Positions 5,176 through 58,945 of a stretch of 64,000 nt of DNA are shown here, one piece after another. The translations under genes and the position numbers were made by a program. The notes beneath the pieces are model-generated. The model searched no databases. It worked only from the letters and a program-made list of their open reading frames with translations, and was not told the DNA's origin. Within the stretch, counting starts at the first letter, position 1; every line of letters starts with the position of its first letter. Origin of the DNA: Echinarachnius parma (lineage: Eukaryota; Echinodermata; Echinoidea; Clypeasteroida; Echinarachniidae); the NCBI GenBank assembly GCA_037951105.1, contig JBAMJV010003256.1, forward strand, positions 62,001 to 126,000, in the 5' to 3' direction.

Positions 5176-8100
5176 CTGTATTGTGCAGAAATCAAGAACC
5201 ACAGATTAAGCGATTTAACACATTATAAAGACGAGGAGGAATGGCATGCATGTGTGAAGCAGAAGCCATCATACAACCCAGCAAATGGTATGGATGGCTT
5301 AACCAACCAAATACTGACATGCCAAGTAATCATTTTATGAAAAAAATATTTCAGTTTATACATTTGTCTCATCACAATCATTATCATATCTTTTGTATCT
5401 ATATATAGCTTTATTTTATTTTATTTTTTTTTTAGCAATTTTTACAATTATTTTTGTTGTCCCAGAAATACTTAAATATTTTTGGGGGTATATTCTGGGG
5501 AAAAAAATCCATTAATAAAATACTGAGAAAAATCTCACCAATAAATCACACTATCACAAAACATGATTCACTATTTTCTATTCGACTTACATGGATGTCA
5601 TCATGGTATTGCCGTGCTGCCCATGCCTGCTGGTTGTGTAGGTGAACGTACTGCTAGTATTTGCAAATCCCCTGCTTGGGACGCAACCTAGAAAAAGAAA
5701 CAGACAGCATGGATATTCAGTGAATCAGTTCAGTTAAATCAATCGTGAAAACAAAATAATATATTACATGTATGATGCATATCAATAAAACAAATCATAC
5801 ACATAAAACAGATTTAAATGGGAAGGCTAAACAAAAAAAAGTAAGAAACTAGATACAAAGTATACACACAATTGTATATGTTTGATACAAATTATACAAT
5901 CTAATATTTATATATGAAAAAATATCACATCTCAAAGAAGCATCACAAGAGCTGCACTTGTTTACATTATCTTATAATAGAAGGTAGTTTTGATTCGTAA
6001 ATCAGAATGCACGGAGCCATCTTGCAAACACAATGCATGCTGTGCGATATATGTGACCGGCTATAGCAAAACCCTGCACTTGTCGGTAAAAATTGAAATG
6101 TTGATTTTCAAACCATTAGAAAGGCCTCGTCACAAGCTTTCAATTGATGCTTTGTTCTTACAAATTGGTAAATAATTGGCGAAGATATGATTGTTTCAAT
6201 TGTACAATCATACATGTAGGTCTTTTACACACATTATGTGAACTTCAGTTTAAATGCCCATTTCTTCAAAACATGAATTACCGACAAGTGCCGGGTTTTG
6301 CTATAGCTGGTCACATATAGACTGGTTCAGTATTGTGTAGTTTGCGCAAAGTAACCTCGGTCTGACCGGTTCTAAGATTCTTGACGATCTTCCAGTGGAT
6401 AATTAAAAATCTGAACCACTTCAATCAGAAATTTCTTTTTAACGAAAGGCGGGAATTCAAGAAAAGAAAAAAAACATGTTCCATGCTTCTATTGGTAATA
6501 CAAATACAACAAGGTATGAATGCACCACTAGAGTTCTAGGTTGAGATTTGTGGATTTGGACAATGTTACTAGATCCCTTTTTTAAAAGTATCTTTGTTTC
6601 AATAACTTACTCGTGACGCATCCATCGTCTTCAATCTCGTCCAGGTGGTAGGAGTCTCGCTTGGTATCGATTTCCCTGAATCCCTTGACGACAACTCCAG
6701 GCCTGGCATCCAGCATGCTAGCAATGTGAGGTGTGGCGAGTCGCTGCCAGTGATGTAGCGTCATTGATCCTAAAAAACAGATGATAAAAATAATTACCCC
6801 AAAAGTCTATCATCAGCAATAATTTCATTATCAACGTCAATATGATTCCTATCGTGGCTTAACCGTTTCAGCGCCGCGGTAGACTCTAGTCGCAATAATC
6901 ATAGAATCAAATCAATTGGTTTGTTCCTTAGTGCAAACAATACATAAATGTGGAGTTAAGAGAATACACACCTAACCCCTTACCAATCTTCTATTCGTTG
7001 AAGACGAATGGCATCCTTTCTGGGATTTAAGCTACTGTATAAGCCAATATTTTCGTGTACAGATATTTTCGCAAATGACAAGGTAATCAACATATTCGCG
7101 AGTGGCAGACGGGCCCATCGAAAATCCGCTGCCGATTCACTCCATCATTTGTATACAGTAGTAATGTATGCAGACTGTGCTTGTGCATGGTACATGCGTC
7201 ATTTGCAACCCAATATGCAATGAAGATTGTCAGGTGGCAATATTTTTGCGTGTTGTTAAATTCGCAACTCTGTAGCGATTCGCAAAATTCGCAAAAATAA
7301 AACCATCCCGAAAATAACAGCGTATACAGTATTCAATTAAACGAGTGAAAAGAAGTGGGTCAAGGGAATTCTTGCAATTAAAAATGTTGGCACTCAGGGG
7401 GTTCAGGATGCCAATGCTGAAGAGTCCTCAAACCTTATTTATAAAAAAACAATAATATACACATTTTTACTCCACCACCTGCTAATGACAGTGAACTATG
7501 GCGTCTCAATTTGTATAGCAATTTAAATTACAAACCTTCCATGGGCTTGACAATCTGCAGTTTCTCCGGCATGCAGCCCCTAAATGTCTGCCCCCCTCCT
7601 CCTCCTCCTCTTCTTCTTTTATTATTCTTATCCTTATACCCTAACTCCATCTCTCCCTTAACTAGAAAAATAGAAGGAACTTTTAAAACAACTTTTACAA
7701 ACTGAAAGAATGACAAAACTCGATAAATAAGACCGCCGCCAGCTATAGCAAAACCCGGCACTTGTCGGTAGAAATCAAAATGTTGATGTTCGTACGATTA
7801 GAAATGCCTCGTCCCATGCTTTCATTCGATGCTTTGTTCTAACTAATTGGTCAATAATTGGCAAAGATATGATTTTTTTCATTTTTACAATCATTGGTCT
7901 TTTACACACATTATATGAACTTTAAAATGCCCATTTCTTCAAAACATGAATTACCGACAAGTGCCGGGTTTTGCTATAGCCGGTCACAAATGATAATGAC
8001 AATTACAAACCTTCCATAGGCTTGACTATCTGCAGTTTCTCTGGCATGTAGCCCCTGAATGTCTGCCCCCCTCCTCCTCCTCCTCTTTCTCCTGCAGGAA

Positions 8101-11100
8101 GAGTTGACATTCCCGACAGCCCAGACAATCCCGACGAGAAACTCCCGGCGGGACTGCGCGTTCCCGTGGGCGAGTCCGCGTGGAGCTCTGCGTAGTCCTT
8201 CTCCGCGCTGTCGTTCTCTCGTCGCAGCTTGAGGCGTCGCAGAGCGGTCGCGAGGTCGTTTGATCCCGGAATGACGGACGCTTGGGGTTTTTGGACGTTC
8301 CTGGTTGAAGCACAGGAAATAATTACATAAAAAGTTCAATTTTGTTCTAATTTTTAATTCGCCTCTAAATTAAAATGGAATAACTTGTTTCTTTCCTCAA
8401 AACTAAATGATGTTCTGAGAAAAACAGAATCTGCCAGACAGATACAATTAACAATTTTGGAATTTCGGTCTACTGGTTATTGAAATATTCCAATTACAAG
8501 CTATTTTTGCATAAATAATGATCCTTGTAACCTTTGACCTAATGTCTCCCAAATCTTATTAGATCATTGTCTGCCTGATATGTACACCCATACCAAGTTT
8601 GACATTGATCCATTGCAACCAATCCTCAAGATATTGCTAGAACAAAAATGGGAGAGATGACTGCTTCGTTGGTGGAAGTATCAATTCATGCAAACAAAAA
8701 TCAATTTGTATGCTTACCCGCTAGAACCGTCGATAGACTCGCTATCTCCCTCATACATCTCACTCCGCTCTGAGCCGACCAATGACACTACGGAACTGGA
8801 TGGGGAAGTCTTACGGCTGAAGTAGTCGCTACTGCTGTATCCAGACGCAGGACCGTTGACGAAATTCCGCTTGTTGACGCCCTTGACCGTGTTCATCACG
8901 CTTTTGTTGTATTCTCTGAAAACAAAGAGTGAGGAAGCAACAAATTAGTTATCAATGTAAATCTTTTTTACCTTAAAAATAACACATTGAATATGATCAA
9001 CTGAAAGTCGTATACAGCCTAGTTACTAACGTAGCCAGACACTTTGTCCTGCATTTATCATGCTTCTGTTGTATTCTCTGTTAAGACGGGAACATTAGGA
9101 TATTTAAACAAACAAAGCTGTGTTGATTTTCCTATTATATCGAAACCACAATAGTAATCATATAAATTTAAAGGGCTAAAACATACTATTGTATTCAGAT
9201 CATGCAGTATCATTTAGTTCTGCTTTTGAAAAGAAAATCTTTCTCTATTCTCTGTTAACCCACTCAGGACTGGTCCCGAAAATACTCGGGCTAGGGTCTA
9301 CGGAGAATACATGCTATAGCAAAACCAATCCGTCCTGAACGGGTTAAAACAGTATTACCCCAAACAAATATCAATATAGAGATGGAAAATTAACAACAAA
9401 TTTTGACCGACCTCTTTCCTTTCTTGGAGAGATGGGGATCTTTCTCCAGGCTCTGCTCAACAGAGTCGACCAGCTCGGCTGCTAGGGAATCCTGGGAAAG
9501 GAAAACAACAAAGAAAATCAATTAGCAAATAAATGAACGAGGAAAACAATTTTGTAATTGTCCAAAAGTTTGTGAGCTATTAACATATACGTGTGTATTA
9601 TAAACATACATACTTGAAAGGAGTGACGTATGTTTAATAAATAATTCAATAATTTTCTTAACTTCAGCATAATTCAAAGATTGGTATTAAACAGAGCTAC
9701 AGGTCTCAGCATGAATGGGTGCAAGTCAAGTTTAATGTTTTTACAAATATTTAAGTGAGATTGATATTGATAATATGCAATCGTAAAATTTGTACAGGAA
9801 GTACAGAAAAAGTATTAATAGCATCAGGTATTTTCTATTCACTTATAATTCCAAAACCAGGGGGACAAGACTTCCACAAGTAGGAGACTAAAGCCTGGCG
9901 CAGATAGAGCCAACTCGACCCGACTGAAAGCCACAGTCTGTCTGATTCAGCATGTTGAATTGGGCCCTATTGGCTAGCGACTGAGGCATGAGGTAATGCA
10001 CACAAACCGAATTGGACTGAAAACCAGTCGGATCGAATCGAGTCGGCGCTGTCTGCACTGGGCTTCAAGCAGTAATAACTTAGTGCTAAAGTGTAGGAAA
10101 CTTACGGCGGGAAAGACGGGAAGGGGGTTGAGGTAGGTGCCGAACCCGATGCCTCCAGACATGGAGCTCCTGTTGGATTTCTTGGCGGTCTCCTGGGCCT
10201 CCTGCAACATGGTGTACACCTCATCATACTTCTCCCTGTACTCAAGGACCTAAGGGCAGGAGACAAAATTTAAAAGTCATTTATAAAAATGTTCATCATT
10301 TTTTTCTAGTGCGGCAAGATCTGAATAAAGGATTTCTTGTAATATGATTGAGCCACCAAGGGTCTCCTGGTCTTCTTGGCAGTCTCCTGCACGTGGTGTA
10401 CACCCACATCATACTTCTCCCTCTTCTCAAGGAGCTAAGGGCAGGAGAAAACTTAAAAGTCATTTATAAATGTTCATCATTTTTTTCTAGTGCGGCAAGA
10501 TCTGAATAAAGGATTTCTTGTAATATGATTGAGCCACCAAGGGTCTCCTGGTCTTCTTGGCAGTCTCCTGCACGTGGTGTACACCCACATCATACTTCTC
10601 CCTCTTCTCAAGGAGCTAAGGGCAGGAGAAAACTTAAAAGTCATTTATCATTTTCCAGTGCGGCAAGATCTGAATAAAGTTTTTCTTGTAATATGATTGA
10701 GCCACCAAGGGTCTCCTGGTCTTCTTGGCAGTCTCCTGCACGTGGTGTACACCCGCATTATACTTCTCTCTCAACTCAAGGAGCTAAGGGCAGGAGAGAA
10801 GAAATATCCACTTATATCTAAAGAAAACTGGGCCATGAGTAAGACTTCTTGGTTTATTCAAGGACTGATGTCGAAGATCTCTGAGAAATATTGTACACCT
10901 TTTAATACACTTCTCTCTCCAAGACCTAGAGGCAGAAATAACACAAAAAATATCCCACTTACATCTTATTTTAAGAAAGGCGACAAAGCGTATTTGGGTA
11001 TTTAAGGGACTAATCTAGGAGATCAAGGAGAAATATTGTAAACCTCTAGTATACTTCTCTCTCATCCCCAGGAGCTAATAGCAGGAGAAACAAGAGAATA

Positions 11101-12071
11101 TCCACTTATATTTCAAGAAAACGGGACCAAGAGCAATATTTATTTGGTTAATACAAAGGTCTGCTATTGGTTCTTACGCTAACTTGCACATCATTTGTTT
11201 TATTTTTTTCCATCTGCAGACATTTGTTCTGATGGTTTATTTAAACCACATTACTGTAAATTACCAGAGGAAATAATGTTGCCAGTCCCATATGTCATGG
11301 AGCCCTGACAAAATAACAATAAATAAAGAGCAATAAATGAAAATGAGCAAAGAAAAAGAAAGGGCTCCCCGGGATACGAACCAGAGACCTCCGGATTGCA
11401 AGACCCGTGCTCTACCAACTGAGCTAGAAAGCCCTTGTGCTGGTTGTATGTCCCTGAAAACCCTTTCAATGCTTATGATGGTCAAAAGCTATTATGAACC
11501 TGATGCAAACCCTAAGGACAAGAAATCAACTTAGGGATAAGTGTGAGGGATCACCGAAGTGATGCAGTTTCTTTTGTATAAATTATTTCAAACATAGGGA
11601 AACTAACCAGAAATTTTAATTTCAATTGTATATATATGTATCACCCATCTCTGTGGCCTCTAAATTCATATTTGCGCTCTAAATCCCTATCATGTGACAA
11701 CTGTTCAATTTGTAAAATCACGCATATCTTTGTACGCACTGTGAGCAAGGTTTTATTATGCGATAATACGGTCATCGAGCAATTTCAGAGCGCAAATGAT
11801 TATTGTATGCAGGATCCTATGCGTGCGCACAGGCCTTGCGGAGGGGCGCTTGGCCACTAGTTATATTATATATTTCTGGTCAGTTTCTCTATGTTTGAAA
11901 TAATAAGACATGAGAGCAGTTACAAACCTCTTTGGTGAGTTCTTGCTGCGCTTCCTTGGAGGCCCGGAGGTGTCTGCTCATCTCCTGATTCTCCACCGAC
12001 AACTGAAGCAAAGATCAACAGATATAAAATAGTTTACAGATGTAATAGCGAGGGATCACAGACTATAATGT

Positions 12072-12106
<35 letters not shown>

Positions 12107-15100
12107 TGGTATGATCATTGTACATTAATGTTATTCCACAAAGGATGGATTTTATACTACACAAATTTTGAGATTGATAATATGATTTCTTGACTAACCA
12201 CTTCCCTATTAAATGCTTCTGTTGTTTGGTTTGCAAATCCTTGAAACTGGGTTACTTACATAGTTCACTGACCTTCTTGACCTTTTGTTGGAGGTCATTA
12301 TACAAGTTTATTTCGTGGGTCGGTGGAATTGTTTGCACGCGGTAACTATGGAAACTAGTCTAAACCCACTCGGCTTCGCCTCGTGGGTTTAACAGTTCCA
12401 TAGTTACCTTGTGCAAACAATTCCTACCGACCCACTCATACCTGCGCATCATCTGTTTTATAGAATGGGCATTGTTACGCCCCCCAAAAAGTCAAAAAAT
12501 TAAAAATTAGAAAAATTACCGGATGCATGAAATAATTTTACCGGACGCATGGTAATTTTTCTAATTTTTAATTTTTTTACTTTTTGGGGGGCGTAACAAT
12601 GCCCATTCTATAAAACAGATGATGCGCAAGTTTATTTCGTGGGTCGGTGGAATTGTTTGCACGCGGTAACTATGGAAACTAGTCTAAACCCACTCGGCTT
12701 CGCCTCGTGGGTTTAACAGTTCCATAGTTACCTTGTGCAAACAATTCCTACCGACCCACTCATACCTGCGCATCATTTGTATAATGACCTATGCTAGCAG
12801 GATTGTGATCTTTTCTTGCTGCATCATGTTATCTATAAAACTTCAAACCTCACGTTGTCTAAACATACAGTGTGCTAATCACTTTACTTTTAGATGTATT
12901 GTTAAATATACAGTAATCCATTCTTATAAATGTACATATTCTATTAAAATAAAGAACTGAAAGTACACTGACCTTCTTGACCTTTTGTTGGAGGTCAACA
13001 AGCTTTGCTAGCAGCATGGTGATCTCTTCTTGCTGCCTCATGGTATCCTCAAACTTTTTACTCAGCTCATCTGTCAGTATTTCTACACTGCCCCTGGCTT
13101 CACCTGTGGGGTAAACAAAGATCGAGACAAAGCTGAACAGATATTCTCACCTTGATAGCATTGTAATTGCAGTTATCATCACTATCAGTATCATATACAT
13201 GTATCACATATTAACTATAAGTAGAATGATTATGATCTCATCATCATCATTATTATCAGCATCATCCTCATCTTCATTATCACCACCATCCCAGACTTTC
13301 ACCACAATCCCAACTAACTCTACCTCCACCACACCACCAACAACACGGCCACACCTACAACCACAACCACTACCACAACCACCATCACCACCACCACCAC
13401 CACCACCATCACCTTTATCACTATCATCATCATCACCACCATCGTTGTAAATCACCATCCCCTTCCCTTCAAGCTACTCCTCATCCTGCCGTCCTTTCCT
13501 CCTCCTCATCATCATCATCTTCACCAAACACTGTTCTTTCTTACCAAGTTGTTTGAAACAGTCCCTAACGAGCTGCTCCTCTTTTTCCTCTATGTGCGTG
13601 CTCTCGGTCCGTAGCTCGGCCGTCTCCATTTGCAGATGGAGGTTAACATAACTATATCATCATCATCATCATCATTGTCCTAACCGATTGCTGTTTTCCT
13701 TACCAAGTTGTTTGAAACAGTCCCTAACAAGCTCCTCCTCTTTCTCCTCTATGTGCACGCTCTCGGTCCGTAGCTCGGCCGTCTCCATTTGCAGATGGAG
13801 GTTAACATAACTATATCATCATCATCATCATCATCACCATCATCTAAAATAATCACTGCCCTTCTTACCAAGTTGTTTGAAACAGTCTCGCACAAGCTCC
13901 TCCTCTTTCTCCTCTATGTCTATGCTCTCGGTCCGTAGCTCTGACGTCTCGATTCGCAGATGGAGGTTCTCTTGTTCCAGGTTCTTAATCTTCTTCTGCA
14001 GGATGTCGATGTTGATGTACTTGGACTGGAGACACATCTTGCTCTTCTCACTTCTGCGATACAATACAAAGAAATTAATGTTAAAATGTTTAAAAAGATG
14101 GGTGAAAATAATGACATGTATGCATTCATTCATTGGCCCTTGATTTTCTTTTGTTATTACAAGTTTGTAGTTCAAAGTTATTAAAAGAATAGTTGTTGTT
14201 GATTGTAGTTCAAAGTTATTAAAAGTTTGTAGTTCATAGTTCAAAGTTATTCAAAGAATAGTTATTGTTGTTGTTGATTGTAGTTCAAAGTTATTAACAG
14301 TTTGTAGTTCAAAGTAATTCAAAGAATAGTTATTGTTGGTGTTGATTGTAGTTCACAGTTATTACAAGTTTGTAGTTCGTAGTTCAAAGTTATTCAAATA
14401 ATAGTTATTGTTGTTGTTGATTGCAGTTCAAAGTTATTCAAAGAATAGTTATTGTTGTTGTTGATTGTGGTACAAAGTTATTAAAAGTTTGTAGTTCAAA
14501 GTTACTAAAAGGATAGAACTTACGGGGTCGCTTCCTCTTCGGAATCGCTCTGGCTGATGTCATTGGTGTAGATCCTGAGCAGGTCATCCTTGAGCTTGAG
14601 CTCGTGATGCAGCTGGATGTTCTGGGATTAAGAAGTTAAATCAGGCAGGTTAGATGCTGCTTGTAAGTATCGGCTTCCATGGTGGTGTAGATATACAGTA
14701 GGATTGCGGTGGCACCATGTGAGAAGGGAGGATTGGATAGTCCCGAGATACTCCTGACGACGGACAAGTCAACCTCAACCTGTTCAAAACGTCGAGCCCC
14801 TCCTACCACCATCCTTTCCTATAACTATAACCCATACCAGCGCTGTAGTTATTTTTTTAGAACTAAAGCTCAATAAAGAATACCAACAGTCCTTTCCAGG
14901 ACTTCCCAAGAAATAATACCAACAGTCCTTTCCAGGACTTCACAAGAAAGAATACCAACAGTCCTTTCCAGGACTTCCCAAGAATAAATACCAACAGTCC
15001 GTCTCCCTTCTCACATGGTGCAACCGCAAGCTGACTGTATAGGCAGGTTAGGATAAAATCAATCTCTCTTTTTATTTTGTTCAATTAGTTCATAAAAAAA

Positions 15101-48100: not shown

Positions 48101-48910
48101 AGCACATATTATTCATGTTCACCTTCTGTTATTTTTGTTCATTTACCATAATTTTCTGTTCTCATATTTTTTAAAACTCATCTTCCCTTCTCATTTCGCC
48201 CTCTCTCTCTCTCTCTCTCACACCATTTTATTCATTCAAGTGCCCAGTATTCTAACTCAAACCACGATCACTGAAATACTTGATGGTATACCAAACATAA
48301 TTCCAATGGGAATTCACTTGAAAGAATTCAATTTCAAAATGTTCTCTAAATGTCTTAATGAAAATGTTAAAAATTCAGACGAAACAAAGTCTGACCTCAA
48401 CAGAATGTCTGGAAGTATAAAGAATGTCTTTATAAGCAAATGCAGATTGAAACTCGCTATTTTTCAATTATACCCTGTTTCTAACAAAAAATGACATTAA
48501 ATTGAAAAGCAAATAAAAATTAAAATTAAAAAATTCCAAACTCACTCAAATACTTGAGTGTCTCCACCATCATCTTATATCAGCTAGCACCATAATAAAA
48601 AAATAAAATCTGAACTAAAATCAAACAAGATAAAAAATAAAATTTTAATTTTAATTAAAAAAATAAAACTCACTGAAATACTTGAGGGTCTCCTCCATCA
48701 TCTCCGAGGACAGGATGTAGCGGTCATCGTCGTCCATCTCGAGCCCGCCGTCGCTGGCCATTAGCCCGGCCGTGGCCGCTGGTCCAAGCCAGTCATCATG
48801 ATCATAGCTGTAGTGGGATGTGGTATCGGCACGCAGCGTGTAGAGAGGGATCTTCTCTTCAAGAAGACTGAAGATCTCCACTTCCGGTATGTTGGAAGAG
48901 TTGTGAAGAT
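3828..48910 (-). CDS. TRAK1: TRAK/Milton mitochondrial transport adaptor, whole spliced gene
   Basis: Spliced minus-strand gene: common exons 2-14 (16578 down to 3828) plus four alternative 5' exons. The joined protein follows vertebrate TRAK1/2 almost block by block: the Q-M-T-K-T-Y-N-D-I-D-A-V-T segment, the coiled coil with the dynein-binding CC1 box AAxxG (residues 59-63 of the 1b isoform), the RQQEEIT..L..LVDLQ segment, DSLAAEL (302-308, in the place of the TRAK Spindly-type motif), a DLATALRRL..RREN block, MPEKLQIVKP and LHHWQRLATPH...DARPGVV. Known family role: it links Miro on mitochondria to kinesin-1 and dynein. The C-terminal 450 residues are Ser/Met/Gly/Pro-rich and not alignable by eye to vertebrates. 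All phases match (2,999 nt common part). Vertebrates have two paralogues; here it is probably the single pre-duplication gene, so TRAK1 is a convenience name. Confidence 0.95.
5176..5590 (-). other. TRAK1: Intron between TRAK exons 13 and 14
   Basis: AT-rich intron; T- and A-runs but no repeat family recognised. Bounded by donor GTAAGT at 5590 and acceptor ATACAG at 5176. Confidence 0.8.
5591..5687 (-). CDS. TRAK1: TRAK exon 13
   Basis: 97 bp, phase 1 to phase 2, acceptor TTTCTAG, donor CCAT|GTAAGT. It encodes VPSRGFANTSSTFTYTTSRH then GQHGNTMMTS, a Ser/Thr-rich linker; TFTYTTSR recalls the STFTFTTCRI segment of vertebrate TRAK2. Phase agrees with both neighbours. Confidence 0.88.
6049..6318. 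mobile_element. MITE with GGCTATAGCAAAACC ends, copy 1
   Basis: About 270 bp. Left end ATGTGACCGGCTATAGCAAA and right end TTTGCTATAGCTGGTCACAT are inverted, and GCACTTGTCGGTAA / TTACCGACAAGTGC extends the arms to about 38 bp. A second copy lies at 7739-7988. Confidence 0.8.
6350..6583 (+). mobile_element. Partial family A MITE (right half)
   Basis: Contains the family A segments CTATTGGTAATACAAATACA, ACAAGGTATGA and GGATTTGGACAATGTTACTA, and ends in AGATCCC plus a T/A run. The left half is absent. Confidence 0.65.
6611..6769 (-). CDS. TRAK1: TRAK exon 12, Milton-family C-terminal block
   Basis: 159 bp, phase 1 at both ends, acceptor TTTTTTAG, donor ACGA|GTAAGT. It encodes SMTLHHWQRLATPHIASMLD, then ARPGVVVKGFREI and an acidic segment YHLDEIEDDG. 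This is the vertebrate sequence S.TLHHWQQLAQPHLG.ILDPRPGVVTKGF with YxLxDxEEDD. The TTAA-type repeat ending near 6583 begins about 25 bp inside the downstream intron. Confidence 0.96.
6770..7535 (-). other. TRAK1: Part of the intron upstream of TRAK exon 12
   Basis: Intronic. No repeat family is confidently recognised; around 7030-7330 Gs and TTCGC/GCGAA words recur and may be a decayed element. Confidence 0.5.
7536..7615 (-). pseudogene. Duplicate of the 3' end of TRAK exon 11
   Basis: On the minus strand it reads RGGGGGGQTFRG then CMPEKLQIVKPMEG and keeps the donor GAAG|GTTTGT at 7536. The exon's acceptor and first two-thirds are missing, and upstream sequence is unrelated. It is a partial tandem copy of 8011-8090, now separated by the MITE at 7739-7988. 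If ever used as a donor it would repeat the PEKLQIVKP block. Confidence 0.85.
7739..7988. mobile_element. MITE with GCTATAGCAAAACC ends, copy 2
   Basis: About 250 bp, the same family as 6049-6318: AGCTATAGCAAAACCCGGCA at the left and GGTTTTGCTATAGCCGGTCA at the right, with the same interior. It sits between exon 11 and its partial duplicate, so it inserted after or beside the duplication. Confidence 0.82.
8011..8300 (-). CDS. TRAK1: TRAK exon 11, MPEKLQIVKP block
   Basis: 290 bp, phase 2 to phase 1, acceptor CAACCAG, donor GAAG|GTTTGT. With the exon 10 phase it reads NVQKPQASVIPGSNDLATAL, then RRLKLRREND, a Ser/Thr/Gly-rich linker including a run of six Gly, then RGYMPEKLQIVKPME. It matches PGS.DL.TALRRLSLRREN and the highly conserved (L/M)PEKLQIVKPLEGS of vertebrate TRAK. 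The two other frames are also long but do not fit the splice phase. The 3' end with its donor is duplicated at 7536-7610. Confidence 0.95.
8521..8655 (+). repeat. Relic of a CCTTTGACCT-type interspersed repeat
   Basis: Contains AACCTTTGACCTAATG, then CCAAGTTTGACATTGATCCA and CCTCAAGATATTGC. The same order of words appears at about 61700-61830 inside the 2-kb element. Confidence 0.5.
8718..8915 (-). CDS. TRAK1: TRAK exon 10
   Basis: 198 bp, phase 2 at both ends, acceptor TTTTCAG, donor CGG|GTAAGC. It encodes REYNKSVMNTVKGVNKRNFV, followed by a Ser/Gly/Asp-rich linker with SSSVVSLVGSERSEMYEGDS. The start matches the TRAK block KRVFETVR.IN. Two decayed copies of the acceptor and first codons lie upstream (exon-start analogues about 9077 and 9251). 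Confidence 0.93.
9060..9260 (-). pseudogene. Two decayed acceptor-side copies of TRAK exon 10
   Basis: CTTCTGTTGTATTCTCTG at about 9063-9080 and TCTCTATTCTCTG near 9242-9254 match the exon 10 start (CTTTTGTTGTATTCTCTG, plus-strand view, at 8901-8918). Spacings are 162 and 174 bp. Only the acceptor and first codons are recognisable. Confidence 0.6.
9264..9345. repeat. Short repeat with GGTCCCGAAAATACTCGGG
   Basis: A dispersed unit of about 80 bp; a relative lies at about 19930-20010 (GGTCCCGAAAATACTTGGGC). Both end in a GGGTTAA word. Confidence 0.55.
9412..9491 (-). CDS. TRAK1: TRAK exon 9, Spindly-type motif region
   Basis: 80 bp, phase 0 to phase 2, acceptor TTCCCAG, donor AG|GTCGGT. It encodes DSLAAELVDSVEQSLEKDPH then LSKKGK. 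DSLAAE corresponds to the conserved (M)DSLAAEIE of vertebrate TRAKs, the site proposed to act as a Spindly-type motif contacting dynactin; function here is by homology. The donor is non-consensus. Confidence 0.93.
9891..10066. mobile_element. Small inverted-repeat element in intron 8
   Basis: Left CTGGCGCAGATAGAGCCAAC and right GAGTCGGCGCTGTCTGCACT are imperfect inverted repeats, and CTCGACCCGACTG pairs with CAGTCGGATCGAATCGAG. No coding content. Confidence 0.55.
10106..10249 (-). CDS. TRAK1: TRAK exon 8, end of coiled coil
   Basis: 144 bp, phase 0 at both ends, acceptor GCCCTTAG, donor GCC|GTAAGT. It encodes VLEYREKYDEVYTMLQEAQE, then a Ser/Asn/Gly linker ending LNPLPVFPA. It corresponds to LEDKYAEC..MLHEAQEE of TRAK. 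Five progressively decayed copies of its 5' half lie upstream in the intron (exon-start analogues at 10434, 10615, 10783, 10925 and 11074). Confidence 0.95.
10250..11100 (-). pseudogene. Tandem array of decayed copies of TRAK exon 8 (5' half)
   Basis: Five units, each a copy of the exon 8 acceptor, its first codons and some flanking intron. Exon-start analogues are at 10434, 10615, 10783, 10925 and 11074 (steps of 185, 181, 168, 142 and 149 bp from the real start at 10249). The nearest two are almost identical to each other over about 180 bp; the outer two are strongly diverged. The coding phase is lost by an indel in the codons after KYD. Confidence 0.85.
11362..11434 (-). tRNA. tRNA-like sequence, Ala(TGC)-type, probable pseudogene
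   Basis: 73 bases on the minus strand with GGGCTTT / GGAGCCC acceptor ends, a TAGCTCAGTTGGTAGAGC D-arm (A box), anticodon loop CTTGCAA, and TCTGGTTCGTATCCCGG in the T-arm position (B box). There is one extra base before the D-arm, two mismatches in the anticodon stem and one in the T stem, so it is likely a decayed tRNA or a tRNA-derived SINE head. Confidence 0.55.
11583..11903. mobile_element. Inverted-repeat element in intron 7
   Basis: Left TTATTTCAAACATAGGGAAA plus CTAACCAGAAAT is inverted at the right as ATTTCTGGTCAGTTTCTCTA plus TGTTTGAAATAA. About 320 bp, no ORF of note. Its right end is 24 bp from the exon 7 donor. Confidence 0.75.
11928..12002 (-). CDS. TRAK1: TRAK exon 7, coiled coil
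   Basis: 75 bp, phase 0 at both ends, acceptor GCTTCAG, donor GAG|GTTTGT. It encodes LSVENQEMSRHLRASKEAQQ then ELTKE, matching vertebrate VENEEL..HL.AAKDAQRQLT. The right end of an inverted-repeat element (11583-11903) lies only 24 bp into the downstream intron. Confidence 0.95.
12273..12855 (-). pseudogene. Decayed TRAK exon 6 copy interrupted by a nested element
   Basis: CTGACCTTCTTGACCTTTTG at 12268-12287 and GCTAGCAGGATTGTGATC plus TCTTGCTGCATCATG after 12790 match the plus-strand view of exon 6 (12968-13045). An inserted element (12293-12789) splits the copy. Without the insert the copy lies about 215 bp from the real exon. Confidence 0.75.
12293..12789. mobile_element. Nested foldback element inside the exon 6 copy
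   Basis: Outer inverted ends GGTCATTATACAA / TTGTATAATGACC. Inside, two direct copies of an approximately 145-bp unit (12305-12450 and 12625-12770), each internally palindromic (GTGGGTCGG...CCGACCCAC, GGTAACTATGG...CCATAGTTACC), flank a 180-bp perfect-looking hairpin (12447-12627) with GGGCATTGTTACGCCCCCCA arms. The hairpin probably inserted into the 145-bp element. Confidence 0.8.
12973..13103 (-). CDS. TRAK1: TRAK exon 6, coiled coil
   Basis: 131 bp, phase 1 to phase 0, acceptor CCCACAG, donor AAG|GTCAGT. It encodes 43 residues including ELSKKFEDTMRQQEEITMLL and AKLVDLQQKVKK, the well conserved TRAK segment EELAKKTED..RQQEEIT.LLSQIVDLQ. A decayed copy split by an inserted element lies at 12273-12297 and about 12785-12855. 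Confidence 0.96.
13199..13545. repeat. (CAT/CAC)n triplet-rich tract
   Basis: A degenerate CAT, CAC and TCC triplet stretch; open frames on both strands are by-products. A purer (CAT)n run lies at 12077-12107. Confidence 0.8.
13545..13812 (-). pseudogene. Two partial copies of TRAK exon 5 (3' half) with donors
   Basis: Copies 13545-13645 and 13704-13805 read LHLQMETAELRTES..IEEKEE(Q/E)LVRDCFKQL and keep the GTAAG donor; the real exon donor is at 13869 (steps 159 and 165 bp). Both break off at the same point (GGAGGTT in plus view) and continue into (CAT)n. No CAG acceptor is next to them, so use as exons is unproven, but the frames are intact and changes are mostly conservative. Confidence 0.85.
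13869..14053 (-). CDS. TRAK1: TRAK exon 5, coiled coil
   Basis: 185 bp, phase 2 to phase 1, acceptor ATCGCAG, donor CTTG|GTAAGA. It encodes SEKSKMCLQSKYINIDILQK, then KIKNLEQENLHLRIETSELR and an acidic segment ending EEKEEELVRDCFKQL. It matches the TRAK block LQ.KLK.LEEEN..L..E followed by YEEKEQQLV.DCVKEL. The 3' half of the exon with its donor is repeated twice downstream (donor analogues at 13704 and 13545). Confidence 0.96.
14160..14515. repeat. Tandem GTTCAAAGTTATT repeats
   Basis: About five imperfect units built from TTGTAGTTCAAAGTTATT and GAATAGTTATTGTTGTTGTT. It ends just downstream of the exon 4 donor. Confidence 0.8.
14524..14621 (-). CDS. TRAK1: TRAK exon 4, coiled coil
   Basis: 98 bp, phase 0 to phase 2, acceptor ATCCCAG, donor CC|GTAAGT. 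It encodes IQLHHELKLKDDLLRIYTND and an acidic Ser/Glu tail, matching the TRAK block QLxHELxxKDELLxxY followed by EESE. Residues 91-122 plus a split Pro. Confidence 0.96.
14696..15037. mobile_element. TA-flanked mariner-like MITE with internal minisatellite
   Basis: Flanked by TA, ends CAGTAGGATTGCGGTGGCAC and GTGCAACCGCAAGCTGACTG, arms of about 40 bp (including CCATGTGAGAAGGGAG). TA|CAGT is typical of Tc1/mariner-derived elements. It contains about 3.5 units of a 40-45 bp repeat (14885-15001; CCAACAGTCCTTTCCAGGAC). No transposase. Confidence 0.82.
15309..15590. mobile_element. Inverted-repeat element with CCCATACTGACGATTTT ends
   Basis: Left GGCCCTGTCCCATACTGACG and right CGTCAGTATGGGACTGGGCC. 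The centre holds an insertion of the small GGGGGGATGA palindrome also seen at 79-113. Lies 20 bp from the exon 3 donor. Confidence 0.82.
15610..15726 (-). CDS. TRAK1: TRAK exon 3, CC1 box coiled coil
   Basis: 117 bp, phase 0 to phase 0, acceptor TTCACAG, donor CAG|GTAAAA. It encodes KEKDLELAAKIGQSLLQQNK followed by a Glu/Asn-rich coiled coil (39 residues). AAKIG is the CC1 box used by dynein adaptors to bind the dynein light intermediate chain. Residues 52-90 of the 1b isoform. Nearly identical to vertebrate TRAK in its first half. Confidence 0.97.
15793..16440. mobile_element. Family A MITE interrupted by a foldback element
   Basis: AAAGGGATCTA at 15795 and GTAGTAACATAGTCAAAATC at 16180 are the two parts of a family A end; between them lie inverted arms of about 135 bp (15802-15945 and 16053-16185, sharing ATCTTGCAGAAAACCCTATT). 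The remainder of family A follows to about 16380. Confidence 0.7.
16502..16578 (-). CDS. TRAK1: TRAK exon 2 (first common exon)
   Basis: 77 bp, acceptor CCCCCAG, donor GAG|GTAAGT. Entered in phase 1, it encodes LCGDRVVQMTKTYNDIDAV then TKLLEE, the signature opening of the HAP1_N/TRAK conserved region. All four alternative 5' exons fit here. Residues 26-51 in the 1b isoform. Confidence 0.96.
16860..17590 (+). repeat. Pyrimidine-rich tract with poly-C runs
   Basis: About 700 bp almost free of purines on this strand. Around 17035-17310 an approximately 92-bp unit with CTTCATCTAGTGCTCCCTTC recurs three times; 17390-17590 holds two copies of a 110-bp unit ending TTTCAGTACATA. Long open frames here (Pro/Leu/Ser) are compositional. 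Confidence 0.85.
17600..18680. repeat. Degenerate repeats with GAACAGGTATCAT-type units
   Basis: Related segments occur near 17705-17790, 17905-17995 and 18605-18670 (GGAATTCAAA, GGTTTGAGGA, ACAGGTA). An inverted-repeat element with GGGCTGAGTCCAAACGGA and CTTTGACTCGGCTCTAG ends sits at about 18291-18451. Confidence 0.5.
18712..19185. repeat. Two-copy tandem duplication, period about 240 bp
   Basis: Units at about 18720-18946 and 18959-19172 share GGTAGTCAA(T/G)GTGGGTAAAT, TTACTAAAGTGC and GGTCAAGTATGGCGCCTGAA. Confidence 0.85.
19186..20307. other. Intron stretch without recognisable genes
   Basis: Contains a C run followed by an A run near 19280-19299, an (AAATA/AAT)n-rich tract to 19420 and a short repeat relic at 19930-20010. 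Nothing coding. Confidence 0.6.
20308..20645 (-). mobile_element. tRNA-derived SINE, full-length copy
   Basis: On the minus strand it starts with a tRNA-like head (GTGTGGCAAGATTGATAGAA, TTTGCAAT, and the B box GAGTTCGAACC near 20581-20591). The body contains GAGATGGCGCACACAATGTG and AGTGTAAAGCGCTTTGAGAT. A head-less copy lies at 45130-45312. It encodes no protein. Confidence 0.75.
20734..21275. mobile_element. TTAA-flanked MITE, family B, 542 bp
   Basis: TTAA at both ends, then AGGGGTAGTTCAGTTTTGG and its inverse CCAAAACTGTACTACCCCT. No ORF. Confidence 0.85.
22070..22455 (+). mobile_element. TTAA-flanked MITE, family A, copy 22.1 kb
   Basis: TTAA + AGGGATCTAGTAAC ... GTTACTAAGTCCCT + TTAA, 386 bp. 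Nearly identical in layout to 44620-45009 and 53222-53601. Confidence 0.88.
22885..23439. mobile_element. TTAA-flanked MITE, family C, 555 bp
   Basis: Ends AAGTGATCCAGGTAAAGTGT and ACACTTTACCTGGATCACTT directly next to TTAA on both sides. The interior is unlike families A and B. Confidence 0.85.
23592..23658 (-). CDS. TRAK1: TRAK alternative first exon 1d
   Basis: ATG at 23658, 22 codons plus one base, donor TCCA|GTGAGT. The peptide begins MKKEWEFISSYLYDVLEIGD and then LS. Its phase-1 end joins exon 2 with split codon ACG (Thr). The predicted full protein is 1,021 aa. It is the alternative start nearest to the common exons. The evidence is an ATG, a strong donor and correct phase; there is no homology to known TRAK N-termini. 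Confidence 0.68.
23659..26220. other. Region upstream of exon 1d, possible promoter, no other gene
   Basis: The exon 1d promoter should lie here but no TATA box or clear motif decides it. Degenerate repeats with GGAATATCCCGGCCAAAAGC occur at about 25035 and 25110 (85-bp step). The minus-strand frames at 25381-25722 and 25777-25983 resemble nothing known. Confidence 0.4.
26240..26365 (+). repeat. G-rich minisatellite, (GAGTGGGGAGGGGGG)n
   Basis: Seven or so units of GAGTGGGGAGGGGGG-type, with many G runs of four or more. Further G or C runs at 26487-26499 and 26611-26629. Confidence 0.9.
26640..27236. other. Intron stretch, nothing recognised
   Basis: AT-rich sequence; a few related TTTTA(C/T)AGCC(C/T)(A/T)GGTATA words recur at about 26735, 26938 and 27045, suggesting an old tandem repeat. 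Confidence 0.45.
27237..27317. repeat. Solo copy of the 80-bp TTAA unit (family D)
   Basis: TTAACCCATTGCCTACGGGA ... GGGGAACAGGTTAA. The same unit forms a tandem array at 58381-58945. Other solos: about 31191-31272, 31636-31793 (two abutting), 36488-36565, 38790-38873, 43183-43265, 43483-43563 and 45008-45090. Confidence 0.85.
27955..28399. mobile_element. MITE with CGTGTTCAAACACAAAC ends
   Basis: Left CGTGTTCAAACACAAACA and right TTTGTGTGTGAACACG are inverted. The interior repeats ATCATGATTCTTTATACGAC-like words on both strands at least six times, mixed with CGTCGTATA words. CpG-rich compared with surroundings. Confidence 0.75.
28400..29038. other. Intron downstream of exon 1c
   Basis: AT-rich, nothing recognised. 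Confidence 0.5.
29039..29120 (-). CDS. TRAK1: TRAK alternative first exon 1c
   Basis: ATG at 29120, 27 codons plus one base, donor ATTG|GTTAGT. The peptide begins MGKLGFQSESEFLESV and ends RRRASI, a basic segment that fits a basophilic kinase (PKA-like) consensus; that reading is an inference. The phase-1 end joins exon 2 with split codon GCG. The predicted full protein is 1,026 aa. The region just upstream in the sense of transcription (about 29130-29420) is a 2-copy tandem repeat with a period of about 135 bp. Support is the ATG, open frame, matching phase and donor; transcript evidence is lacking. Confidence 0.7.
29130..29420. repeat. Tandem duplication of the 5' flank of exon 1c
   Basis: Two units sharing CAGAACACTATTG, GTAACCATG, ACAGAA, CCCTGCTT(C/T)CAAGGCA and CTACTACAGCA, offset by about 135-138 bp. 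It lies directly upstream of the exon 1c ATG and therefore may contain or duplicate promoter or 5' UTR sequence. Confidence 0.8.
30266..30342 (+). CDS. Candidate first exon of a THAP-domain gene
   Basis: ATG at 30266, 25 codons plus two bases, donor AG|GTAAGA. The peptide is MALKQSGCTLPNC then HDSITLFSYFPE. C-x4-C followed by a F-x-F-P segment is the order at the start of THAP zinc-binding domains (often fused to P-element-like transposases in marine invertebrates). The rest of the domain (W, second C-x2-H) would be in later exons and was not found, so this may be a gene start nested in the TRAK intron, a transposon relic or chance. Confidence 0.33.
30343..32640. other. Intron stretch; no further gene found
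   Basis: A moderately GC-rich patch at 30640-30900 contains two ATTGGCTG / GATTGG CCAAT-box-like words. A C run of about 20 at 31332-31351. Three family D units lie at 31.2-31.8 kb. Nothing coding was recognised. Confidence 0.45.
32652..33490. repeat. Minisatellite, 106-121 bp units
   Basis: Eight units beginning (A)CCAGGAAGA(C/A)(T/G)TGCTAAC, starts at about 32652, 32739, 32845, 32951, 33059, 33180, 33300 and 33420. The last three are nearly identical 120-mers; earlier units are 106-108 bp and lack the GACCATAATA insertion. The recent expansion is therefore at the right end. Confidence 0.93.
33545..33990. repeat. Two-copy tandem duplication next to the minisatellite
   Basis: The two copies share TTCAACTATCATGCCATGAC, CCAAACAGGAAAGCCTGTTA and CACATGACTTGAT, offset about 260 bp. 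The words TTAACAAGGTCTAA and AGGTCTAA also echo the minisatellite unit. Confidence 0.85.
34142..35748. mobile_element. 1.6-kb inverted-repeat element
   Basis: Left end GTGGCCATATTCATAAAACC and right end TTTTATGAATATGGCCAC, followed inward by CGATAAGC / GCTATCGG and AAGGCCTGGCCTAG-like words. The inside has a 141-codon plus-strand frame (34980-35405) built round C runs, which resembles no known protein. Target duplication not identified. The most likely reading is a non-autonomous DNA transposon. Confidence 0.75.
36002..36163. mobile_element. Palindromic MITE, family E, copy 1
   Basis: CCCGTTGCAGAAAGAGATAC and its inverse near both ends, then AATCGATTGTA; the whole element folds into one hairpin of about 160 bp. 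Copies at 47891-48040, 50836-51002 and 51032-51200. Confidence 0.85.
36164..38147. other. Intron between exon 1b and the family E copy
   Basis: One family D solo (36488-36565); otherwise AT-rich with no coding signal. The short frames here are compositional. Confidence 0.5.
38148..38223 (-). CDS. TRAK1: TRAK alternative first exon 1b
   Basis: ATG at 38223, 25 codons plus one base, donor GCAG|GTATGG. The peptide starts MSSEKQGDEEPEDPLAW and is strongly acidic, like the short acidic N-terminus of a vertebrate TRAK1 isoform. The phase-1 end fits exon 2 (split codon GCG, Ala, then LCGDRVVQMTK). The predicted full protein is 1,024 aa. No acceptor is needed, so it probably has its own promoter. 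The exon and its 5' flank recur as decayed copies at about 38486, 38651 and near 38899. Confidence 0.8.
38224..38930 (-). pseudogene. Decayed tandem copies of exon 1b and its 5' flank
   Basis: ATAATCAATCACCATCAGTT and CATCTCGCAAAA..CATGATCCTGAC from the exon 1b start region recur at about 38486-38545; a more diverged copy that includes part of the exon is at about 38610-38705, and a trace near 38880-38925. Allowing for an inserted piece after 38283 and a family D unit (38790-38873), the step is about 140-165 bp. Confidence 0.75.
39534..39631. repeat. 98-bp hairpin element
   Basis: GGGTGATTTCAAGTATGGTG at the left and CACCATACTTGAAATCACCC at the right; the arms continue through GTTTA and GGTGTTAGTGTTTAT to a short centre. 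Confidence 0.85.
39640..40955. other. Intron stretch, nothing recognised
   Basis: AT-rich; only a partial family D fragment near 40373-40400. Confidence 0.5.
40956..41225. mobile_element. MITE with TCACATATCACCGGATA ends
   Basis: Left TGTCACATATCACCGGATAG and right TATCCGGTGATATGTAACA are inverted; further in, GACGCCCGACGGA and TCCGTCCGGCATC also pair. About 270 bp. Confidence 0.8.
41230..42190. repeat. Degenerate tandem repeat, period about 200-225 bp
   Basis: Two close copies (41577-41803 and 41803-42010, sharing ACATACAGTTGACAAGCACA and GGCAACC(C)GTGAAAAGCACTT) lie between two diverged ones (about 41340-41560 and 42010-42180, with GTTGATGGACTCAACT / GTTGATGGACGCAAACT and GGCATAAAT). Confidence 0.85.
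42582..42999. mobile_element. TTAA-flanked MITE, family F, copy 1
   Basis: TTAA + AGGGTACCACCACCCAAAAA ... GTGGTCCCCT + TTAA. Shares AAACAGTACCAAAACATATA and ACACAACCCTTTGCAAA with the copy at 60212-60524. Confidence 0.85.
43082..43660. repeat. Tandem duplication, period about 305 bp, each with a family D unit
   Basis: The two halves share AATACATTGACCTCCTT, GTGGTTACGTGAAAA, ATGGTTGGTTATCATTT and CAACAGATAATAGGTGTTTT. Each contains one family D unit at the same site, so the unit inserted before the duplication. Confidence 0.9.
44620..45009 (+). mobile_element. TTAA-flanked MITE, family A, copy 44.6 kb
   Basis: 390 bp, TTAA + AGGAATCTAGTAACTTTG ... CAATGTTACTAAGTTCCT + TTAA. Directly abuts a family D unit (45008-45090) sharing the terminal TTAA. 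Confidence 0.88.
45130..45312 (-). mobile_element. Truncated SINE copy (no tRNA head)
   Basis: AAAGCGCTTTACACTATTAT, ATTGTGTGC and CACTCCCTGGGGAGCATT match the body of 20308-20645; the tRNA-like head is missing. Confidence 0.75.
45808..45960. mobile_element. Small inverted-repeat element, GGGCCCTGTTT ends
   Basis: Left GAGCCCCGTTTCAAAAAAC and right ATTATCAAACAGGGCCC; AATTACTGTAAC..GATTGG interior. About 150 bp, moderate end match. Confidence 0.5.
46044..47030. other. Intron stretch with homopolymer runs
   Basis: A G run of about 20 at 46477-46496 and a C run of about 17 at 46944-46960. Nothing coding. Confidence 0.6.
47086..47241. promoter_or_regulatory. Inverted octamer motifs in a CpG-containing patch
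   Basis: ATTTGCAT (47086-47093) and ATGCAAAT (47234-47241), the POU/Oct-factor site in both orientations, flank a patch with TATTGG (CCAAT) words and (TG)n. No exon can be attached to it. It could be an enhancer or part of an old repeat. Confidence 0.25.
47891..48040. mobile_element. Palindromic MITE, family E, copy 2
   Basis: GGGCCCCGTTGCAGAAAGAG ... CTCTTTCTGCAACGGGACC (imperfect), hairpin of 150 bp with TACAATCGATTGTAAGTC. Confidence 0.88.
48546..48600 (-). pseudogene. Partial copy of the 3' end of TRAK exon 1a
   Basis: CACTCAAATACTTGAGTGTC plus TCCACCATCATCT mirrors the real exon end (CACTGAAATACTTGAGGGTC, at 48672-48691) with its GTGAGT donor. The step is 128 bp. The rest of the exon is not recognisable. 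Confidence 0.7.
48674..48910 (-). CDS. TRAK1: TRAK exon 1a (long-isoform N-terminal block)
   Basis: 237 bp, entered in phase 1 through acceptor tttaaacag and left in phase 1 at donor GTGAGT. It encodes a segment with DLHNSSNIPEVEIFSLLEEK, then LRADT..YSYDHDDWLGP, a Gly/Asp-rich stretch and MEETLKYF. This is the vertebrate TRAK motif order LPEVE.SLLEEQ, Y.LRADT, YDHDDW, EETLKYF just before the common coiled coil, so it belongs to the longest isoform. It has no start codon and so needs at least one upstream exon, perhaps the candidate ending at 49552 or one beyond the window. Partial decayed copies lie on both sides (donor side at about 48546, acceptor side at 49071, 49245 and 49436). Confidence 0.93.
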
Positions 48911-49004
48911 CTGTTTAAAATGTAAAAAATAATTGAGCTGATTAGTGATTAACAACGGATTTGTGTCGTCTAATAGATCGTATTACGGCCTTTACAGAGC
49001 CTAC

Positions 49005-49445
49005 AGAGGTGTCTTTTTCTTGAGAAGACTGAAGAACTCCACTTCCGGAATGTTGGAGGAGTTGTGAAGATCTGTTAAAAGAAAGTAAAAAAGAATGATG
49101 AAATTGACTATTAATTCCCCAAAATATGTATTTTGTATACATATTTGTTGCTGTAGTGGGAGGTATCTTTTCCTCAAAAGGACTATTATTATTATGAGTA
49201 AATAAAAGATCTTTACTTTCAGGATGTTGAAAGAATTGTGAAGATCTGTTACAAACTAACAAAGAAAATAATTACATTTATCACTATTTCCTAAAAGATT
49301 TGATGCTTTGAGTAGTTATTAGTTACTGTAGTGAGATGTTGTTTGTCATGCCGCTTGTACAGTATGATTTTCTTTTCAAGTACATTTAGGTTACATTGAG
49401 ATGTCCACTGCGGAAAGTTGGAAAAATAGTGAAGATCTGTTTACA
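49005..49445 (-). pseudogene. Three decayed acceptor-side copies of TRAK exon 1a
   Basis: Exon-start analogues at 49071, 49245 and 49436 (steps 161, 174 and 191 bp from 48910), each with GAAGATCTGTT in plus view. The nearest reads DLHNSSNIPEVEFFSLLKKK, then a stop codon three codons later, so its use would truncate the frame. The two outer copies have more changes. Confidence 0.82.
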
Positions 49446-58380: not shown

Positions 58381-58945
58381 CCTTAACCTTTTCCCTCCTA
58401 GATTTTCCACAATCCCCATCTAGAGTTAATACAGGACCCAACAGGTTCCAAAAGGCAATGGGTTAACCTGTTCCCTACTAGATTTTGCAATCCCCTTAGA
58501 GTTAATACAGGACCCACCAGGTTCCAAAAGGCAATGGGTTAACCTGTTCCCTACTAGATTTTGCAATCCCCAATAGAGTTAATACAGGACCCACCAGGTT
58601 CCTGTAGGCAATGGGTTAACCTGTTCACTAATAGATTTTGCAATCCCCATATATAATTAATACAGGGCCCACCAGGTTCCCATACATGTACACAATGGGG
58701 TATTTACCTGTTCCCTCCTAGATTTTCTACAATCCCCATAGAGTTAATACAGGACCCACCAGGTTCCAAAAGGCAATGGGTTAACCGGTTCCCTACTAGA
58801 TTTTGCAATCACCATAGAAATAATACAGGGCCCACCAGGGTCTCATTTATAAGCAATGGGATATTACCTGTTCCCTACTAGATTTTGCAATCCACATAGA
58901 GTTGATACAGGGCCCACCAGGTTCCCATGTAGGCAATGGGTTAAT
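58381..58945. repeat. Tandem array of seven family D units
   Basis: Units of 77-83 bp (starts about 58381, 58464, 58541, 58616, 58700, 58783, 58866): AACCTGTTCCCTACTAGATT, TTGCAATCCCCATAGAG, TTAATACAGGACCCACCAGG, TTCC and GGCAATGGGTTAA. Several units join at a single shared TTAA. Confidence 0.93.

What the first reader, a model, noticed from the sequence alone, without database searches (positions are those of the whole stretch)
7536..49445. Exon-centred tandem arrays: many TRAK exons have nearby decayed copies of their own splice-site ends
At exons 1a, 1b, 5, 6, 8, 10 and 11 the flanking intron holds one to five partial copies of that same exon, always including one exon edge and its splice site. 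Spacing is 128-191 bp where no insertion intervenes (1a: 161, 174, 191 and 128; 5: 159, 165; 8: 185, 181, 168, 142, 149; 10: 162, 174) and comes to a similar figure elsewhere when inserts are removed. The 5' flank of 1c (about 135 bp) and the coding block in exon 14 (156 bp) fit as well. One gene with so many independent exon-edge arrays at a near-nucleosomal period is not something I know to be described. A chromatin-linked duplication process is a speculation.
Basis: partly seen in the sequence, partly recalled or inferred. Interest (0 to 1): 0.85.

Follow-up and report, generated by a model that had tools for sequence, protein, structure and literature searches.

The report
Exon-edge copies from local duplications
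In this genome, probably an echinoderm's, short stretches of DNA are often copied next to themselves, so many exons, not only those of the TRAK gene, have worn partial copies of themselves in the neighbouring intron.

Summary
The arrays exist. A TRAK/Milton gene lies on the minus strand. Partial exon copies were recovered at exons 1a (my E2), 1b, 5, 6, 8, 10 and 11, most with E below 1e-6, at spacings close to those reported.

TRAK is not special. Local direct duplications cover 11% of 140 kb of arbitrary genome. Within TRAK, exons are no more affected than introns. Kinesin, myosin and chaperonin (CCT) genes show the same anatomy.

The arrays are live: the second haplotype has other copy numbers at exons 8 and 6 and a changed exon 5 array. 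A duplication spanning one exon edge leaves the exon whole plus a partial copy with its splice site, so the edge rule is largely geometry.

Beyond TRAK, 26 of 52 tested exons are touched against 145 of 786 non-overlapping control segments (ratio 2.7, interval 1.7-4.2). Slower decay of exon-anchored similarity predicts 23-32%. Age-matched tests are mixed: p = 0.32, 0.72, 0.02. A real exon preference is possible, not shown; the chromatin link is untested. I read this as an unusually pervasive form of a known process.

The parts
   Evidence: splice sites checked; reading frame read
49002..49443 (-). three acceptor-side partial copies of that exon (49002-49096, 49206-49250, 49399-49443), each with AG
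   Evidence: (E 1e-24, 2e-10, 8e-9)
48505..48575 (-). donor-side partial copy, shift 129 (20-bp remnant also at 48268-48287)
38148..38223 (-). probable alternative first exon 1b, from start codon to donor; copies of its start region at 38486-38543 and 38678-38702
   Evidence: exon inferred from sequence only
29162..29411 (-). two-unit repeat (shift 134) in the 5' flank of the probable first exon 1c (29039-29120)
13869..14053 (-). exon 5
   Evidence: part of the HAP1_N match
13538..13803 (-). two donor-side copies of exon 5 (13699-13803, 13538-13644)
12973..13103 (-). exon 6
12262..12833 (-). donor-side copy of exon 6 split by an inserted element (copy pieces 12789-12833 and 12262-12297)
   Evidence: the other haplotype has such a copy without the insert
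10106..10249 (-). exon 8
10369..11088 (-). acceptor-side copies of exon 8 (10369-10467, 10550-10648, 10718-10800, 11037-11088); one more unit in the other haplotype
8718..8915 (-). exon 10
9054..9080 (-). acceptor-side copy of exon 10, shift 162 (146 in the other haplotype)
   Evidence: E 1e-6
8011..8300 (-). exon 11
   Evidence: Milton match
7526..7611 (-). donor-side copy of exon 11; a 253-bp repeat element (7739-7991, similar to 6057-6318) lies between
4453..4670 (-). coding repeat inside exon 14, shift 156 bp = 52 codons
18741..19174 (.). example of an intronic duplication away from exons (shift 226) whose copy number differs between haplotypes
57669..58328 (.). example of a duplication upstream of the gene (shift 233) whose copy number differs between haplotypes

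Best explanation
This genome undergoes frequent, ongoing short-range direct duplication (mostly tandem, some spaced; typical shift 130-230 bp) in introns, intergenic DNA and across exon edges. When a duplicated unit covers part of an exon and part of the intron, the full exon survives on one side and a partial copy with its splice site is left in the intron. Such events are tolerated and pile up as arrays by further duplication and exchange between units. Because the exon is held by selection while the copy drifts, exon-anchored copies stay recognisable longer than wholly intronic ones, which makes exons look favoured. Shown: the arrays, their presence in unrelated genes, allelic copy-number differences, direct orientation at the exons tested, and no excess at exons within TRAK. 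Inferred: tolerance by selection and the molecular route (slippage, template switching or unequal exchange).
For: Pervasive: 38 arrays in 140 kb of arbitrary genome, 11% coverage, against 14.6% in TRAK and 20% upstream. No enrichment in TRAK. Same anatomy in kinesin, myosin and CCT genes: all 7 loci picked for overlapping profile rows hold a partial exon copy, 6 of them with an edge. Live: one extra unit at exon 8, two at exon 6, a changed exon 5 array, and intronic and upstream arrays that also differ (the stretch 23.6-51 kb was not searched for indels). Direct: 26 direct, 0 inverted of 48 exons; controls 29 and 5 of 150. Not mobile as far as seen: of 46 genome matches reported (40 of 226 candidates scored), the five that cover the exon-8 unit are this locus or its haplotig. 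Lens: simulated exon-anchored pairs stay detectable 1.33-1.56 times longer; young age-matched pairs show no significant excess (10 of 67 against 80 of 720, p = 0.32).
Against: The lens predicts 23-32% of exons touched; 26 of 52 were (p = 0.00004 to 0.005, or to 0.01 with TRAK). Resampling by contig and stretch gives a ratio of 2.7 and a chance of 0.009 that it is 1.56 or less. One age-matched cut stays significant (20 of 67 against 125 of 720, p = 0.02). In CCT genes 12 of 19 exons contrast with 13 of 113 intron segments, which overlap and come from two genes. Exon shifts are less spread than non-exon shifts. Some young copies share much less sequence than their spacing (L031 127 of 203 bp, L059 67 of 252), which a simple tandem duplication does not give.
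Confidence: 0.6

Rival explanations
1. Exon-linked (perhaps chromatin-linked) duplication: exon edges are true hot spots for copying at about one nucleosome or Okazaki-fragment length, so that exons gain copies more often than introns and with a tighter period.
For: 26 of 52 exons against 145 of 786 controls, ratio 2.7 (1.7-4.2) by cluster bootstrap, chance 0.009 of lying at or below the simulated lens of 1.56. Shift median 187.5, IQR 168-209, against 179, IQR 128-234 for 44 non-exon arrays (Levene p = 0.0007, Ansari p = 0.002); p = 0.0009 after weighting for the chance of spanning one edge.
Against: No excess in TRAK, 0 of 4 in myosin. No significant excess among young duplications. The shift distributions do not differ by the KS test (p = 0.15), and the band 145-215 was chosen after seeing the data. 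Polymorphic arrays are few and mostly not at exons. Three gene families of one genome, ranked by profile score. No nucleosome data; the echinoderm repeat lengths that I recall (about 200-240 bp) do not fit 187 closely.
Confidence: 0.23
2. The copies are kept because they do something, for example decoy or alternative exons that compete for splicing.
For: All 14 window copies in TRAK whose aligned block covers the edge keep AG or GT although blocks are 75-97% identical to the exon; in other genes 13 of 16 that I could judge by eye keep it in the aligned column. The exon 5 copies are open in frame.
Against: Some copies carry a stop or a frameshift (L036, L037). The exon 5 copies differ from the exon by several amino-acid changes (read). 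Copy number differs between haplotypes. Copies within one array are not independent, so the retention is weak evidence. No transcript data.
Confidence: 0.08
3. The arrays are assembly errors.
For: The assembly is fragmented (14,790 contigs) and holds both haplotypes in places.
Against: Copies tested are mostly 70-97% identical, not near-perfect. The separately assembled haplotig has the arrays at 1a, 1b and 1c with the same spacing, at 11 within 2 bp and at 10 with 146 instead of 162.
Confidence: 0.02
4. Transposable elements carried exon pieces into the introns.
For: Repeat elements lie in or between copies (12303-12785, 7739-7991).
Against: The five reported matches to the exon-8 unit are all at the locus or its haplotig (40 of 226 candidates scored). 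No inverted copies at 48 exons. The element in the exon 6 copy is absent from the other haplotype.
Confidence: 0.03

Closest known systems
Tandem duplication across an intron-exon boundary in the potato RdRp gene (PMC4974935)
   Same: The duplicate holds the 3' part of an intron and the 5' part of the next exon with its splice signals, as at exons 1a, 8 and 10 here.
   Different: A single event that made a new spliced intron; here many exons and genes, repeated copies, decayed, and no evidence of splicing. I saw its abstract and passages.
Internal gene duplication in eukaryotes (Gao and Lynch 2009)
   Same: Frequent duplication inside genes, some including whole introns.
   Different: Not held in the library, so known to me only from citing passages and recall; worn exon-edge copies left in introns are, as far as I recall, not its subject.
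Small segmental duplications in Drosophila (PMC6380325)
   Same: Frequent, mostly under 500 bp, polymorphic, mostly eliminated (abstract and outline seen).
   Different: Reported as less common in noncoding functional elements; not exon-anchored arrays.
Tandem exon duplication and mutually exclusive exons
   Same: Exon sequence repeated in direct orientation beside the exon.
   Different: As I know them, those are whole exons with both splice sites; the TRAK copies hold one edge only. Papers on them were seen only as a search listing.

Membership tests
Short-range direct (tandem) duplication | copies in the same orientation close together | tested here: met
   26 direct, 0 inverted of 48 exons; controls 29 and 5 of 150
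Short-range direct (tandem) duplication | homologous block about as long as the shift (strict tandem) | tested here: inconclusive
   exon pairs median 0.59 of the shift, non-exon 0.91, p = 0.47; exon 8 inner copies are strict tandem at 181; L031, L034, L059 are spaced
Short-range direct (tandem) duplication | copy number unstable between alleles | tested here: met
   exons 8 and 6, and exon 5 rearranged; 17.0, 18.8, 52.6, 54.0, 56.5-57.1 and 57.9 kb
Mutually exclusive or tandem whole exons | complete exon with acceptor and donor | tested here: not met
   TRAK copies found hold one edge only
Intron gain by boundary duplication | new intron actually spliced | not testable with these tools
   no transcript data
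Exon-targeted duplication | excess at exons after matching for age | tested here: inconclusive
   three cuts: p = 0.32, 0.72 and 0.02
Nucleosome-period process | period equals the species' nucleosome repeat | not tested
   no MNase data; the search was seen as a listing only and no paper was opened
Transposon-borne copies | related copies at unlinked places | tested here: not met
   exon 8 only: the five reported matches to the unit are the locus and its haplotig (40 of 226 candidates scored); other exons not searched genome-wide

The most novel reading that the evidence does not exclude
Exons are true hot spots of local copying in this lineage: a replication- or chromatin-phased process lays partial exon copies, splice sites included, about 187 bp away in the neighbouring intron, at roughly half of all exons. 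It would be a standing source of new splice sites, introns and alternative exons.
Probability: 0.2. Interest if true: 0.8.

Novelty: new variant of a known kind. Interest (0 to 1): 0.5.

Why it matters
If about half of the exons in a genome sit beside worn copies of their own edges, cryptic splice sites with real exon context are abundant raw material for intron gain, alternative exons and mis-splicing, and gene prediction near exons becomes less reliable. The exon acts as a clock, because one copy is frozen while the other drifts, so old local duplications can be dated that are invisible elsewhere. The shift near 187 bp makes a link between duplication and chromatin or Okazaki fragments directly testable with long-read population data and MNase maps.

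Tried and rejected
TRAK-specific array-making was rejected: no excess at its exons and the same pattern in other genes. I then took the whole matter for a conservation artefact; simulations gave too small a factor (1.33, then 1.56 and 1.47), so I kept a modest exon preference open. In one search the control segment was tracked only roughly; one search is the better version. Control segments overlap each other, so their p-values are too small; one search repeats the comparison with non-overlapping 200-bp frames and resampling by stretch and contig. Copies upstream and downstream of the exon: 16 and 10, no clear bias. Promoter and RNA-family searches and structure predictions were not run, as they bear little on the question. 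Literature: searches (listings; one found nothing) showed no report of exon-edge arrays as a genome-wide feature; I saw the abstract and passages of PMC4974935, passages of PMC2809761, and the abstract and outline of PMC6380325. Gao and Lynch 2009 and the remarks on nucleosome repeats and Okazaki fragments are recalled.
Full report
WHAT IS THERE. The window holds a TRAK/Milton gene on the minus strand (Pfam HAP1_N and Milton). I placed 16 exons with their splice sites from the sequence; there was no transcript to check them. Mitochondrial COX1 of the same assembly has AAA, ATA and AGA at positions that I recall as conserved Asn, Ile and Ser, which is the echinoderm code, so the animal is most likely an echinoderm. 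The assembly has 1.2 Gb in 14,790 contigs and keeps both haplotypes here.

CHECK OF THE OBSERVATION. Blastn of each exon edge against its surroundings recovers copies at 1a, 1b, 5, 6, 8, 10 and 11 with E-values from 2e-39 to 5e-5. The exon-10 copy at 174 was not recovered. All 14 window copies whose aligned block covers the edge keep AG or GT.

IS TRAK SPECIAL? No. Direct duplications with shifts of roughly 80-305 bp lie all over the introns and upstream of the gene. In 14 arbitrary 10-kb stretches of the genome they cover 11.0% with 2.7 arrays per 10 kb; in the gene 14.6% and 4.2; upstream 20% and 4.7. Scored in one way, TRAK edge windows reach the cut in 5 of 27 cases (two real arrays, at exon 2 donor and exon 5 donor, were masked as low complexity; with them 7 of 29; exon 10 fell just under) against 120 of 602 intron windows and 33% of 208 windows upstream; rank test for edges above introns p = 0.97. 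With the 1.2-kb test, TRAK exons are touched in 5 of 15 (exon 14 left out for its length), exon-dense introns in 25 of 63, big introns in 35 of 150.

THE SAME THING IN OTHER GENES. Profile searches for CCT, myosin head and kinesin list exons across the genome; each scores only part of its candidates. Seven loci where two rows covered the same model part within 1 kb were fetched. All seven show a partial exon copy, six with one exon edge, at neighbouring shifts of 139-313 bp. Being selected, they show existence only.

TEST OF EXON PREFERENCE. I then took kinesin exons by rank: rows 1-39, one of each pair that looked like haplotypes by model range and score (a judgement by eye), 29 loci, five of which are among the selected seven. 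Of CCT I took 19 exons: ten listed exons of two genes (one row with six stops dropped), eight by rank, and L037, which was among the selected seven and also stands in the rank list; rows 1-3 and 15 were not taken and row 9 was taken for a haplotype. Of myosin I took the four top distinct exons; L036, selected, was left out. Touched: 14 of 29, 12 of 19 and 0 of 4, in all 26 of 52. Two kinesin loci (L032, L033) share one duplication and may be one event (25 of 51 if merged). Controls: 69 of 420 random segments and 66 of 300 TRAK intron segments; a second draw gave 69 of 420 and 76 of 300; CCT introns 13 of 113. The raw odds ratio with TRAK exons included is 3.4, p = 5e-6, but those control segments overlap. 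With 786 non-overlapping control frames (145 touched) and resampling by contig and stretch, exons stand at 35-65%, controls at 13-24%, ratio 2.7 (1.7-4.2) (TRAK exons not included there).

HOW MUCH IS A LENS EFFECT? An exon is held by selection, so similarity between exon and copy decays more slowly than between two intron copies. Simulated duplications in real sequences give a detectability factor of 1.33 (exon rate 0.3 of neutral), 1.56 (0.1) and 1.47 (0.1 with more indels), so 23-32% of exons would be expected. The observed 50% exceeds this (p = 0.00004 to 0.005 without TRAK, up to 0.01 with it), and the chance that the true ratio is 1.56 or less is 0.009. Matching by age instead, with TRAK exons included: exon identity at least 88% against control at least 82.5%: 10 of 67 against 80 of 720, p = 0.32; against control at least 80%: 10 of 67 against 99 of 720, p = 0.72; at least 82% against at least 72%: 20 of 67 against 125 of 720, p = 0.02. 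So the excess sits mainly in older pairs, as a lens would give, but the lens as modelled is not strong enough. Different turnover of sequence near and far from exons could fill the gap; I could not test it.

PERIOD. Shifts at exons: median 187.5, IQR 168-209, 19 of 26 within 145-215. Non-exon arrays: median 179, IQR 128-234, 16 of 44. The exon set is less spread (Levene p = 0.0007, Ansari p = 0.002), also after weighting for the chance of spanning one edge (p = 0.0009), but a KS test of the two sets gives p = 0.15, and the band 145-215 was chosen after seeing the data. The general scale is shared by non-exon arrays, so it belongs to the duplication process first.

MECHANISM. A unit that spans one exon edge leaves one complete exon plus a partial copy with the splice site; this explains the edge rule without any targeting. 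The second haplotype (C4099; 98.4% identical over 28 kb, about 70-97% in the other aligned pieces) shows that arrays move: one more unit at exon 8; two more at exon 6, where the window's single copy is split by an element absent from the other haplotype; and at exon 5 the intron starts after exon and first copy look exchanged. Arrays at 1a, 1b and 1c are the same in both, 11 differs by 2 bp and 10 by 16 bp in spacing. Polymorphic direct duplications also lie at 17.0, 18.8, 52.6, 54.0, 56.5-57.1 and 57.9 kb (which did not cover 23.6-51 kb). No inverted copies were found at 48 exons. Of 46 genome matches to the exon-8 region the five that cover the unit are this locus or its haplotig (with 40 of 226 candidates scored). 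Slippage, template switching or unequal exchange would all fit; several young pairs are spaced rather than strictly tandem, which favours template switching or later deletion for those.

WHAT IS KNOWN. A tandem duplication crossing an intron-exon boundary is published for a potato gene, where it made a new intron (PMC4974935, abstract and passages). Frequent internal gene duplication (Gao and Lynch 2009, not held) is cited there and in PMC2809761 (passages). In my searches I saw no report of worn exon-edge copies at about half of the exons of a genome. I file it as a new variant of a known kind: known in process, unusual in extent.

Noticed in passing
window 13538-14053 and C4099 about 74600-75100: At exon 5 the intron starts behind the exon and behind the first copy look exchanged between the two haplotypes, suggesting conversion or unequal exchange between an exon and its copy (read by eye).
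   Followed up: partly
window 12303-12785: A palindromic element sits inside the exon 6 copy; the other haplotype has such a copy without it.
   Followed up: partly
window copies listed: All 14 TRAK copies whose block covers the edge keep the splice dinucleotide although blocks are 75-97% identical; notable if the copies were independent, which within one array they are not.
   Followed up: partly
C3255 against C4099: Haplotypes differ very unevenly: 98.4% identity over 28 kb, about 70-97% in the pieces on either side, with many indels over 50 bp.
   Followed up: no
window about 15880-16120: A long inverted repeat, seen by eye, lies between exons 3 and 4.
   Followed up: no
window 11360-11435, minus strand: A tRNA-like sequence with an unclear anticodon (ARAGORN) lies in the intron between exons 7 and 8, possibly part of a SINE.
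   Followed up: partly
window 43060-43661 and 58383-58944: Two places carry what looks by eye like related repeat sequence in opposite orientation, one as a 76-80 bp array.
   Followed up: no
window 30681-30968, minus strand: A 96-codon open frame that looks protein-like but has no Pfam match at E <= 1.
   Followed up: no
G000:C14600: The contig with mitochondrial COX1 is 19.7 kb, longer than I recall for usual echinoderm mitochondrial genomes.
   Followed up: no
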